Below are positions 279-49,742 of a DNA stretch of 64,000 nt, piece after piece; the stretch's first letter is position 1, and the number at the start of each line of letters is the position of its first letter. The notes under the pieces were generated by a model. The model saw only the letters and a list, made by a program, of their open reading frames with translations. It ran no database searches and was not told the DNA's origin. The DNA comes from an uncultured Clostridia bacterium (GTDB lineage: Bacteria; Bacillota; Clostridia; Christensenellales; CAG-917): positions 1 to 64,000 of the forward strand of contig CALWAF010000006.1 of the NCBI GenBank assembly GCA_944372795.1, read 5' to 3'. Made by a program: the position numbers and the translations under genes.

Positions 279-400
279 CTGACGCTCTCATTTGGATGAA
301 GTGCGCGAAAGAGCCACTGCCGAGAGGCGGAGCTTACTGAAGTAAGTGAGCATCTACGGCAGTGGCTCTGACAAAGCAATTCGCCAAATGAGAGCGTCAG
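279..400 (-). repeat. Palindromic terminal-inverted-repeat element, copy A
   Basis: The element is bounded by perfect 17-bp inverted repeats: CTGACGCTCTCATTTGG at 279-295 and its complement at 384-400. Inside is a long hairpin with arms AGAGCCACTGCCG and CGGCAGTGGCTCT and an apical CTTAC/GTAAG stem. On the minus strand its end sequences align with copies B, C and D, but its inner arms differ completely while still pairing. It lies at the 3' end of rqcP, whose TGA stop (397-399, minus strand) is part of the terminal repeat. It encodes no protein. It may act as a terminator or mRNA 3'-end structure, or be a miniature mobile element. Confidence 0.85.
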
Positions 401-639
401 GATATTATGCGGTACATTTCGGAGGCAGACTGTTTAGTCTGCTTCTCCTCCACGTTCAGCACCTCGAAGGTGAGGGAACTGCTGCCGAAAGAGACGGTGA
501 CGACGTCGCCGGGTTTGACCTCTTTTGCGGGCTTTGCCGCCTTGCCGTTGATCTCTATGCGTCCGCCCGAGCACGCTTCTGCCGCGACGGTGCGGCGCTT
601 GATGACGCGGGAGACTTTCAGAAACTTGTCTATCCTCAT
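397..639 (-). CDS. rqcP: RqcP-type S4-domain RNA-binding protein
   Basis: This 80-residue protein is a single S4 domain: it opens with MRIDKFLKVSRVIKRRT and contains GGRIEINGKAAKPAKEVKPG and a basic face. It closely resembles RqcP (YabO) of B. subtilis, which works with RqcH in ribosome-associated quality control, helping alanine tailing on stalled 60S-type subunits. The length is as expected. A ribosome binding site AGGTG lies just upstream on the minus strand (644-648). The gene is divergent from rpoB. Its TGA stop is supplied by the terminal inverted repeat of the palindromic element at 279-400. The family assignment is firm; the role is inferred from B. subtilis. Confidence 0.88.
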   Translation of the reverse strand: MRIDKFLKVSRVIKRRTVAAEACSGGRIEINGKAAKPAKEVKPGDVVTVSFGSSSLTFEVLNVEEKQTKQSASEMYRIIS

Positions 640-749
640 TTTTCACCTATTATTTTCCGTCTTTTGCGGGACTTTCCGAGGGGCGGAGAGGGGCGCAGGA
701 AGGGCGGAAAAATTTTGTGTTTTTCTTGCGATTTCCCCTGTTCGGGCAC

Positions 750-778
750 TTGACAGACTTGCAAATCGCTGATACAAT
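750..778 (+). promoter_or_regulatory. Sigma-A-type promoter for rpoBC
   Basis: TTGACA at 750-755 and TACAAT at 773-778 are separated by exactly 17 bases. Transcription would start near 785, giving a leader of about 175 nt before rpoB. The leader has a GGGGGTAGGGGG run near 829 and T/A-rich tracts at 895-930. I see no recognised riboswitch or r-protein leader in it. Confidence 0.85.
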
Positions 779-961
779 AGAAAAATGCGCAATAATGCTT
801 ATTCCTGCCCTCGAAATCCCGTATTTTGGGGGTAGGGGGTTATATCTAACGGTGTAAGTATAGTGCAGAGCAACAAAAAAAACAACTGCTTTCCGCGAAA
901 GACGGTTTTTCTGAAAATTTTTTTTGCGGGGAACAAAATCGGTAATTTCAAGGAGTGAAAC

Positions 962-47873: not shown

Positions 47874-47953
47874 AGCCGTATTTTGTCACCGGGCGGGAGT
47901 TTTATGCCCCTCCGCAACGCGGCGCGCGTCGGGCGCGGGTGGTGCGGCTTTGT

Positions 47954-49468
47954 TCAGTTGCGGGGTTTTTTAGCCGTCCTCCCCGCAGGCAGCAGCATGG
48001 TGACGAAGCCTCTGACGTCCACTATGCCGAACGCGGCTATGAAAGCGGCGAACAGCCCCGCCGCGGGCAGCGCCACGACGATCATGGTGAAGAGGTCGTT
48101 GAGTCTTGCGCCCACCAGCCTCTCGAGGAAGATGCCCAGCACCGTGAGGGGGAGGGAGAAGAGGATGACGCAGACGGGACGTGCCAGCCCTTCCGGGCGT
48201 CCCAACCTGCGCACGAGGAAGAAGGCGCCCGTCGCCGCAGTGACGGCAAAGCCCGTCCCGCTCGCCACCGCCGCGGCGTAGATGCCTATCTTGTCGGGGA
48301 GGAAGAATATGCAGGGGAGGGAGCACAACAGCCCGCATACGTAGCAGAAGAAGGAGCACTTCTCCATGCCCAGCGAGTTGAGCACGGGAGTGGTGATGCT
48401 GCCCAGAGCCAGGGGGAAGATGATGACTGCGGCGTAGGAGACGAGTTTGCCCGCGTTCTCGTCGCCGAAGAAGAAGGAGCCCAGCTCTCTGCCCAGCGGG
48501 ACGTAGGCGGCGAAGAACACCGATGCCACGATGGACGCAAAGAGCAGTGAGGTGCGCAATTTGGCGCGGATCTCGTCAAGTTTGCCCGCGGACGCCAGCT
48601 GCGCAAGGTCGGGGATGAGCACGACTGAAAGGGCGGAGATGATGGTGACGGGCGCCATGATGAGAGGGAGCGCCATCCCCGCAACTCTGCCGTATTCGGC
48701 GGCGGCAGCCGCCGCGGTCATGCCTCCCGCGACCAGCCTTTGCGGGATGACCAGCGCAGACAGAGAGGCGGAAAGAGAGGTCAGCATCCTTACGGCGGAG
48801 AGGGGGAGAGAGGAGGATATGAGCTCCCGTCCGCCCTGCGGACGCGCGAGTCTGCCTCCCGCGCGGAAGAAAAGGAGGAAGAGCACTCCCACCGACACTG
48901 CGTCCGAGACCACCATGCCCACGGCGACGCCCACCGCGCCCGTCACCGACGCGAAAAGTCCTCCCGCGAAAAGCATGGAGAAACCTATCTTCAACCCCTC
49001 GTCCACGAGCTCCAGCGAGGAGAAGGTCAGGAACTTCTTTCTCCCCCAGAACCAGCTGCGCAGAGGCGCGTAGAGGGAGGAAGTGACGAGGGCGGGCAGC
49101 ATGACGAGGAAGACGGGCACGCATCTCTCGTCCGCAAACAGCCCTCCCAAGTGCCGCGATAGGGCGAGAAAGACGATGACGAGCGCAGCTGACGAGCCCA
49201 GCCCTATGACGAGGGACGCCGTGGTGAGCGCGTTCTGCCTCTTCGTGTCGCCGTTTGCCGCGCATTCCGCGATCTTGCGCGAGAGCACCGTCGGAGCGCC
49301 CGCGGTGACGGAAAACAGGAGTATGAGCACGCTGAAAGCGATCTGATAAATGCCCACCGCTTCGGCGCCCAGAGTGCGGGACATCCATATCTTGAAAAGG
49401 AAGGAGAGCAGCCTTGTCGCCACCGAGAATACCGTAACAATAGAGAAAGATTTCACCGTACCGTTCAA
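47954..49468 (-). CDS. SpoVB-like polysaccharide/lipid flippase (MOP family)
   Basis: The protein (504 residues) has about 14 predicted transmembrane helices. It begins with VTRLLSFLFKIWMSRTLG-like sequence (VFSVATRLLSFLFKIWMSR) and has QIAFSVLILLFSVTAGAPTVLSRKIAE, the pattern of the SpoVB/MurJ-type MOP flippases that move lipid-linked wall precursors. SpoVB acts in spore cortex synthesis; vegetative paralogues exist. It ends with a basic tail (GRTAKKPRN). It is separated from the large lipoprotein gene by element copy D and its flank. Confidence 0.82.
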   Translation of the reverse strand: MNGTVKSFSIVTVFSVATRLLSFLFKIWMSRTLGAEAVGIYQIAFSVLILLFSVTAGAPTVLSRKIAECAANGDTKRQNALTTASLVIGLGSSAALVIVFLALSRHLGGLFADERCVPVFLVMLPALVTSSLYAPLRSWFWGRKKFLTFSSLELVDEGLKIGFSMLFAGGLFASVTGAVGVAVGMVVSDAVSVGVLFLLFFRAGGRLARPQGGRELISSSLPLSAVRMLTSLSASLSALVIPQRLVAGGMTAAAAAAEYGRVAGMALPLIMAPVTIISALSVVLIPDLAQLASAGKLDEIRAKLRTSLLFASIVASVFFAAYVPLGRELGSFFFGDENAGKLVSYAAVIIFPLALGSITTPVLNSLGMEKCSFFCYVCGLLCSLPCIFFLPDKIGIYAAAVASGTGFAVTAATGAFFLVRRLGRPEGLARPVCVILFSLPLTVLGIFLERLVGARLNDLFTMIVVALPAAGLFAAFIAAFGIVDVRGFVTMLLPAGRTAKKPRN

Positions 49469-49579
49469 TTTTCCGCCTCGAAGCTACGATATGCGCCGCG
49501 CGCGGAAATAATTCGCGAGCCGCCCCGAGGCAAGGAGTGGACACAGGTGGCAGCACACGCAGAGTTGGTATGCGGGTTT
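49469..49579. other. Intergenic flank before element copy D
   Basis: Between the flippase start and the element tail there is no gene. The segment holds GCGCCGCGCGCGG near 49496 and a short word gttggtatgcgggtttc. No clear promoter for the flippase was found on the minus strand. Confidence 0.4.
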
Positions 49580-49617
49580 CGTCGTGCTCGGGTACACTCT
49601 ATCGAGCGTTTGTTGGT
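49580..49617 (-). repeat. 38-bp tail of palindromic element, copy D
   Basis: It begins CGTCGTGCTCGGGTACACTC and runs to the terminal repeat at 49618, closely matching the tail of copy A (241-278). Confidence 0.6.
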
Positions 49618-49742
49618 CTGACGCTCTCATTTGGATGCAGAACAAGGAAAAGGCACCCTTGCAAGGGGTTAGCGTACTTAAACGTACGTGCCCCGCCGCA
49701 AGGGTGCCTTTGACGCAGTTATGCGCCAAATGAGAGCGTCAG
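49618..49742 (-). repeat. Palindromic terminal-inverted-repeat element, copy D
   Basis: Perfect 17-bp repeats at 49618-49634 and 49726-49742 enclose a core identical to copy C read on the other strand (arms GGCACCCTTGC and GCAAGGGTGCC). On the minus strand the hairpin is followed by TTTTCCTTG. It starts 3 bases after the TAA stop of the minus-strand lipoprotein gene and probably forms the end of that transcript. Confidence 0.88.

What the first reader, a model, noticed from the sequence alone, without database searches (positions are those of the whole stretch)
279..49742. Family of ~125-bp palindromic elements with 17-bp terminal inverted repeats
Four copies (279-400, 44074-44198, about 44270-44381, 49618-49742) share the ends CTGACGCTCTCATTTGG and its complement around a large internal hairpin. 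Three of them (A, C, D) also carry a related 38-bp tail at an identical position outside one end. No transposase is near. They look like non-autonomous mobile or REPIN-like elements, or a structured RNA family, not explained by any gene here.
Basis: seen in the sequence. Interest (0 to 1): 0.78.

Follow-up and report, generated by a model that had tools for sequence, protein, structure and literature searches.

The report
Stop-codon-anchored hairpin repeats ending genes
These roughly 125-base hairpin repeats belong to a large, apparently undescribed family in one order of uncultured Clostridia: most copies begin exactly at a gene's stop codon and point the same way as the gene, where related species have an ordinary transcription terminator, so they look like spreading 'gene-ending' cassettes.

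Summary
The 17-bp ends occur 103 times in this 1.6-Mb genome (reversed-pattern control 0). A covariance model from 42 copies finds 79 copies here, 74 in one genome of another genus, and matches in 68 of 297 genomes of the order. Rfam, phages and plasmids gave nothing. Stems vary with compensation (26 of 39 pairs); loops stay fixed.

The frame ends at element positions 1-4 in 101 of 147 fetched copies; the far side gives 4 of 133. TGA and TAA versions have matching 3' arms. L17 and EF-P keep their natural ends. Of 37 such gene ends without an element, 29 have a canonical terminator; after the EF-P elements 0 of 8 do. A modest T-tract follows the core hairpin on the sense strand only.

Best reading: a gene-3'-end cassette (terminator and/or mRNA-end structure) that spreads by copying. 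REPIN membership fails. How it spreads, and what locks it to stop codons, is open.

The parts
279..400 (-). Element A (122 bp); sense strand is minus; positions 2-4 (TGA, 399-397) are the stop codon of the gene at 397-639
240..278 (-). Tail of A, the 38-bp repeat on the gene-distal side
397..639 (-). Gene upstream of A, 80 codons plus stop, ends inside element A (looks like an S4-domain RNA-binding protein; name by eye, not tested)
   Evidence: frame; start read
44074..44198 (+). Element B (125 bp); TGA at 44075-44077 is the stop codon of the gene 42290-44077
42290..44077 (+). Gene upstream of B (595 aa), ends inside element B
44257..44381 (+). Element C, second copy in tandem after B; gene-side arm missing, only the distal end CTGACGCTCTCATTTAG (44365-44381, minus) remains
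44226..44266 (.). Other repeat: short GGGGTCCCC...GGGGT hairpin where C's gene-side arm would be
   Evidence: read; similar hairpins inside several other copies
44382..44420 (+). Tail of C
   Evidence: read
49618..49742 (-). Element D (125 bp); begins 3 nt after the TAA of the gene 49746-54350
49579..49617 (-). Tail of D
49746..54350 (-). Gene upstream of D (1534 aa)

Best explanation
Each element is a gene-3'-end cassette. From the gene side outward it holds a stop codon at its tip, an outer stem arm, a GC-rich core hairpin of about 62 nt followed on the sense strand only by a short T-tract, and a closing arm that is the reverse complement of the opening arm, stop codon included. It stands where related species have an ordinary intrinsic terminator, so it most likely takes over transcription termination and/or protection of the mRNA 3' end. 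Within a genome the copies are spread and made alike by a copying process (gene conversion, or mobilisation in trans by an enzyme not identified). Shown: structure and covariation, orientation, stop-codon position, natural ends of L17 and EF-P, position shared between species, few canonical terminators after elements, identical copies at several genes. Inferred: that it terminates transcription or protects mRNA, that it moves, that it sits at ends of transcription units, and why it is locked to the stop codon (selection for a self-contained gene-ending unit, perhaps helped by microhomology at the shared stop codon).
For: Stop codon at element positions 1-4 in 101 of 147 fetched copies against 4 of 133 on the far side; own genome 38 of 45 at exactly +4 by a 100-codon criterion. 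TGA tips (CTGA..TCAG) and TAA tips (TAAAAC..GTTTTA) with matching far arms. L17 and EF-P end at the same residues with and without element. EF-P carries an element in 7 of 9 same-genus genomes with a complete gene. Canonical terminator at 29 of 37 L17/EF-P ends without element, after the element at 0 of 8 EF-P sites, and after 6 of 50 (G000), 11 of 31 (G020), 4 of 20 (G016) elements. T-score higher on sense than antisense in 127 of 127. Core hairpin mean -32.8 kcal/mol. Some G020 copies hold a canonical terminator (stem plus T7) in their 5' half. Full-length identical copies at 4, 2 and 2 genes of the own genome.
Against: The T-tract is weak (3.9 T in 8 against 6.4 in the canonical terminators) and a simple scan calls no sense-strand terminator in B, C or D. 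About a third of G020 elements keep a canonical terminator downstream. G-T and A-C mismatches are equally common in the stems (S1 49:37, S2 3:7, S3 40:40), so there is no sign of selection for pairing in RNA. Copies in G039 are not at stop codons (0 of 10). Ends are not always natural: G020 copies L200, L226, L289 and L290 end the frame 12-17 nt inside the element, and L226 differs in C-terminal length from its apparent homologue at L074 (by eye). Operon-end location has no measured baseline. No transcript data.
Confidence: 0.45

Rival explanations
1. A parasitic, non-autonomous palindromic repeat (MITE-like) with no host function; it survives mainly where it does least harm, right at the end of reading frames, and its tip has evolved stop codons so that insertion is harmless.
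For: Inverted ends, bursts of identical copies, patchy distribution between related genomes, 79 to 0 in one genus, nested insertion of other repeats, S1 often offers stops in two frames (L040 and L053 use TTTAG).
Against: Selection alone should leave many copies elsewhere between genes and in both orientations; the frame is right far more often than one in three (38 of 45) and the far side is not used (4 of 133). No target-site duplication, no transposase candidate among those searched, no autonomous copy seen. Canonical terminators are rare after elements.
Confidence: 0.3
2. A conserved cis-acting RNA motif of mRNA 3' ends, bound by a protein or cut by an RNase, which forms a regulon; repeats arise only by gene conversion.
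For: Sense orientation, fixed unpaired bases GTCA, CGTAC..GTACG, TTTC with covarying stems, same genes used between species and families (S9, ProS and EF-P ends read by eye).
Against: No G-U preference over A-C; outer arms vary widely between copies; most positions differ between genera (4 shared genes by the C-terminal criterion among 52 x 31 sampled copies of G000 and G020); upstream genes look like mixed housekeeping genes (by eye).
Confidence: 0.12
3. REPIN-like element moved by the genome's RAYT (Y1) transposase.
For: A RAYT-like gene is present in the six genomes of the genus with 33 or more elements and absent from G003 and G007.
Against: No Y1_Tnp in G020 (74 elements), G024, G016, G022, G001 or G008; the RAYT genes are flanked by other repeats; an element near 1 of 7.
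Confidence: 0.03
4. Integron-like recombination site (attC analogue) that follows genes and lets gene-plus-site units move.
For: A folded site directly after the stop codon, variable stems with conserved unpaired bases, a mismatch at stem position 10 in many copies (paired in 25 of 43 unique arm pairs in the genus, 19 of 30 in G020, 0 of 14 in g8).
Against: No dedicated tyrosine recombinase follows the elements: G020, G003 and G007 each have one match. The genes seen look like core chromosomal genes. TGA-type ends lack the attC core sites (consensus recalled, from no call).
Confidence: 0.03

Closest known systems
Pneumococcal BOX repeats (PMC3049150; sections 6 and 9 read, other passages seen)
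   Same: Dispersed repeat with paired ends and strong folding; in 36 of 58 overlapping CDSs the repeat encodes the stop codon at the gene's 3' end without clear truncation; over-represented between convergent genes.
   Different: BOX is modular with boxB arrays and occurs also upstream of genes; no fixed stop-codon position with a compensated far arm is described in what I read. Sequence homology not tested.
SPRITE, terminator-like repeat of pneumococcus (PMC3049150, same sections)
   Same: Dispersed repeat close to gene 3' ends, hairpin plus U-rich tract, proposed to have been co-opted as terminators.
   Different: SPRITE is an 18-bp duplex with a long U-rich tract; here a nested hairpin of about 125 nt with closing inverted ends and a weak T-tract.
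GTAG/CGTC REPs and REPINs (PMC3733652, passages seen)
   Same: Palindromic repeats in many copies; CGTC REPs are said to lack a dedicated transposase.
   Different: Those are short hairpins with an unpaired GTAG or CGTC tag; here ends are paired and the tip is a stop codon.
Inverted DNA uptake sequences as terminators in Neisseria (PMC2397512, passages seen)
   Same: A repeat family that doubles as transcription terminators at gene ends.
   Different: Short repeats tied to transformation and spread by conversion; no nested structure and no stop codon in the stem described in what I read.
Enterobacterial 127-bp RU-1 / ERIC (PMC2759123 and PMC2229807, passages seen)
   Same: Palindromic mobile repeats of similar length that can join gene 3' ends.
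   Different: In the passages seen RU-1 removed the normal stop codon and lengthened the protein; here L17 and EF-P keep their natural end.

Membership tests
REPIN / RAYT system | RAYT (Y1) transposase in genomes with the repeat | tested here: not met
   Absent in G020, G024, G016, G022, G001, G008 (G000 as positive control); present in G000, G002, G004, G005, G006, G009, G012
REPIN / RAYT system | Transposase gene flanked by the repeat | tested here: not met
   Flanks carry GGGGACGGG-type inverted repeats (by eye); model match near 1 of 7 genes
REPIN / RAYT system | Unpaired GTAG or CGTC tag at one end of a short hairpin (definition from PMC3733652 passages) | tested here: not met
   Both ends are paired in the consensus
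MITE (DDE-type) | Terminal inverted repeats | tested here: met
   17-bp ends; outer arms 87-91% complementary against 60-66% shuffled
MITE (DDE-type) | Target-site duplication | tested here: not met
   No excess of direct duplications of 3-9 nt at three offsets
MITE (DDE-type) | Autonomous relative with the same ends | tested here: inconclusive
Intrinsic transcription terminator | GC-rich hairpin followed by a U-tract in the sense direction | tested here: inconclusive
   Strong hairpin, sense-only T-tract, but weaker than canonical and not called by simple scans
Intrinsic transcription terminator | Ends transcripts | not testable with these tools
   No RNA data
Integron attC site | Dedicated IntI-type tyrosine recombinase | tested here: not met
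   PF00589 numbers do not follow elements
Known Rfam family | Match to a covariance model | tested here: not met
   Only an L10 leader in the window; best E 0.22 over seven element loci, to an unrelated family
BOX / SPRITE | Sequence homology to BOX or SPRITE | not tested
   Compared by description only

The most novel reading that the evidence does not exclude
A class of genetic element whose spread is tied to translation stop codons: it arrives precisely at the end of reading frames, in sense orientation, brings or reproduces the stop codon in both arms of its hairpin, and replaces the host gene's 3' end. This would be a mobile 3'-end cassette with a stop-codon-directed (perhaps mRNA- or ribosome-guided) insertion route, for which I know no precedent.
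Probability: 0.15. Interest if true: 0.88.

Novelty: new variant of a known kind. Interest (0 to 1): 0.66.

Why it matters
If right, dozens of housekeeping genes per genome across an order of Clostridia end in one shared, spreading structure instead of individual terminators. It would be a clear case of a repeat family taking over a basic gene-expression signal, it offers a copy-rich system to ask how repeats propagate without a visible transposase, and the stop-codon lock poses a sharp, testable puzzle about how a DNA repeat comes to respect reading frames.

Tried and rejected
REPIN/RAYT: Y1_Tnp searched in 26 genomes, the RAYT protein in 8 (no match; that call had no positive control), Y1_Tnp again in 10 with G000 as positive control. 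It correlates within the genus but fails in six element-bearing genomes.

Retro-mobility: RVT_1 was found in 5 of 26 genomes and not in G000, so insertion through cDNA is unlikely now.

Tyrosine recombinase: every one of 21 genomes has one or more; none tracks the elements. DDE and IS110-type transposases were not searched.

Coding role: the frame after TGA is open for about 20-45 codons in many copies, but element length varies (122-125 in ordinary copies) and the peptides diverge, so no conserved peptide.

Copying of the gene's own sequence into the far arm: tested. There is an excess of complementarity at the first outward base (24 against 12.8 expected in G000, 19 against 8.7 in G020), no clear excess further out; long extensions occur in L282 of G020 (12 bp) and, by eye, in L218 of G024.

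RNA-strand selection: G-T versus A-C mismatch counts show none.

Far-side anchoring to convergent genes: 4 of 133, frames of 117-142 codons that I take to lie in repeats.

Terminators: a first, slightly different detector gave similar counts (7 of 50, 9 of 31, 5 of 20). In one search the one hit after the EF-P element of G005 (L250) lies in a second element, and for G012 (L256) the tested stretch starts inside an interrupted element.

Known collections: Rfam, phages and plasmids at blastn sensitivity with element A, viral contigs (8 isolated matches of the end), and 46 loci with isolated matches of the end from other genomes and viral contigs (0 model matches). Literature: eight searches found no description of this family; the library is open-access only.
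Full report
WHAT IS IN THE SEQUENCE. The four copies are real. A, B and D are complete; C lacks its gene-side arm. In the whole genome (1.60 Mb, 52 contigs; the window is contig C6) the end occurs 49 times forward and 54 times reverse at up to two mismatches, the reversed pattern never. I fetched 44 stretches of it and later 11 more to read copies beside their genes.

STRUCTURE. In the orientation used here (gene side first) an element is one long nested hairpin: outer stem S1 (17 bp), a short S2, an internal loop with GTCA on one side and TTTC on the other, a variable GC-rich stem S3 and an apical CGTAC..GTACG stem. Forty-two sequences from five genomes of the genus give 39 pairs, 26 with compensatory changes; 95.4% of cells pair against 80.9% in shuffles and the covariation score is 0.406 against 0.137, reached by 0 of 500 shuffles. 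Caution: copying of whole copies inflates such counts. Nothing in Rfam matches the element.

DISTRIBUTION. The covariance model R1 finds 79 copies in this genome and 72, 68, 49, 43, 33, 23, 18, 1 and 0 in the other nine genomes of the genus searched; 12-74 in five genomes of two other genera of the family (g4, g8), 1-2 in two more genera, none in the remaining sampled genera of the family; 27 in one genome of another family; 18 of 41 genomes in all. Across a sample of the order, 68 of 297 genomes and 28 of 125 genera have a match at E <= 1e-5; at most 11 candidates were scored per genome, so counts there are floors. The named members with paired ends are four uncultured Clostridia MAGs. Phage and plasmid collections give nothing at blastn sensitivity; 46 loci with isolated matches of the 17-base end, from other genomes and viral contigs, hold no element.

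THE STOP CODON. In the own genome the longest upstream frame ends at element positions 2-4, the TGA of CTGACG, in 38 of 45 copies with a gene-side end by a 100-codon criterion (the seven others include A, whose 81-codon frame does end there), and in 40 of 52 in the wider table, with 2 more one base earlier. Over all 147 fetched copies the frame ends at positions 1-4 in 101; G039, in another family, contributes 0 of 10. The far end does so in 4 of 133. In two own-genome copies another frame stops at TTTAG inside the stem (L040, L053); four copies sit 16-25 nt after the stop and begin CCGA or CCGC, not CTGA (L306, L307, L310, L315). In other genera the tip reads TAAAAC, TAAAC or ATAAC with GTTTTA, GTTTA or GTTAT at the other end. 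L17 and EF-P end at the same residues in species with and without an element. This is not universal: some G020 frames end 8-17 nt inside the element, and the homologous pair L074/L226 differs in C-terminal length (by eye). In a hand-picked list of 52 window genes, B's among them, 11 end in C-TGA, so the near-constant C-TGA is not background usage.

CONSERVATION OF POSITION. EF-P carries an element at its stop in 7 of the 9 same-genus genomes with a complete gene, with several different outer stems, and in G012; G003 and G007, which have 0 and 1 elements, have ordinary terminators there. Between own genome and G020, four genes are shared by a C-terminal criterion among 52 x 31 sampled copies, against about one expected if some 1,450 genes were equally likely (gene number assumed). 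Single loci of other families show an element at the ends of what read as EF-P (L353), S9 (L350), L7/L12 (L344) and, 8 nt after the stop, ProS (L351) (names by eye). Of the 11 loci from other families, four overlap the stop, one frame ends 9 nt inside, two lie within 8 nt after it, and four show no such relation.

WHAT STANDS THERE OTHERWISE. Of 37 L17 or EF-P gene ends without an element, 29 have a canonical terminator within 150 nt (14 of 17 and 15 of 20). After the element at EF-P none of 8 has one of its own. After all tested elements the figures are 6 of 50 (G000), 11 of 31 (G020) and 4 of 20 (G016). The core hairpin (mean -32.8 kcal/mol) is followed by T-rich sequence on the sense strand only: T-score higher than antisense in 127 of 127, but mean 3.9 T in 8 against 6.4 in the canonical terminators. 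Several G020 copies contain a canonical stem plus T7 in their 5' half. Simple scans call no sense-strand terminator in B, C or D. The next gene is convergent in 13 of 27 (G020), 12 of 20 (G016) and 11 of 34 (G000) copies with enough sequence, without a baseline.

HOW IT MIGHT SPREAD. Identical full elements lie at 4, 2 and 2 different genes of the own genome, which speaks for recent copying. There is no target-site duplication. A RAYT-like Y1 gene is present in G000, G002, G004, G005, G006, G009 and G012 but flanked by its own repeats, and no Y1_Tnp is found in G020, G024, G016, G022, G001 or G008. Reverse transcriptases and tyrosine recombinases do not track the elements. Outer arms are 87-91% complementary against 60-66% when shuffled; G-T and A-C mismatches are equally common, which gives no sign that pairing is kept at RNA level and would fit pairing at DNA level or copy-correction.

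INTERPRETATION. One orientation relative to the gene, the stop codon at the tip and the lack of an ordinary terminator together point to a function at the gene's 3' end. Core hairpin plus T-tract gives a concrete mechanism, termination, with mRNA-end protection as a close alternative. These steps are inferred; no transcript was examined. The stop-codon lock is unexplained: plausible is selection for a self-contained gene-ending unit with its own stop at the tip, perhaps helped by microhomology; the bold alternative is an insertion route that recognises the end of translation.

KNOWN RELATIVES. The nearest precedents I found are pneumococcal BOX (in 36 of 58 overlapping CDSs the repeat encodes the stop codon, without clear truncation) and SPRITE (terminator-like repeats) in PMC3049150 (sections 6 and 9 read, other passages seen), CGTC-type REPs that lack a dedicated transposase (PMC3733652, passages seen) and inverted uptake sequences as terminators (PMC2397512, passages seen). 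In what I read none has the fixed stop-codon position with compensated arms; homology to BOX or SPRITE was not tested. Eight searches found no description of this family in the held open-access library.

Noticed in passing
L325 (G000:C22:16500-21500), frame 2182-3012; also L326-L331: A RAYT-like Y1 transposase gene, flanked by its own inverted repeats of the type TTGGGGACGGGC..GCCCGTCCCCAA; a REP system separate from the elements studied here.
   Followed up: partly
window 44226-44266 and inside L039, L061, L033, L034: Short GGGGTCCCC..GGGGT hairpin repeats inserted into or beside the 125-bp elements; a second, smaller repeat family.
   Followed up: no
gene-distal side of elements, e.g. window 1-278, 44199-45370; L032, L037, L041: Long mosaics of further repeats, including units like GAGCACGACGnnnnCTCTTTCGnAGACGG, also seen beside an element in G020 (L277) and as tandem units in G006 (L326).
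   Followed up: no
L205, L225, L231, L234, L237, L240, L243, L246 (G039): In another family of the order the elements follow other hairpins or terminator-like sequences and a shared right flank, not stop codons; probably an independent burst.
   Followed up: partly
L223, L241, L245, L280, L283, L294 (G020): Copies whose 5' half can form either a canonical terminator (GCGACCTG..CAGGTCGC plus T run) or the long hairpin, two mutually exclusive folds.
   Followed up: no
window 25210-25337 (+): Ribosomal protein L10 leader (Rfam RF00557), an ordinary feature.
   Followed up: no
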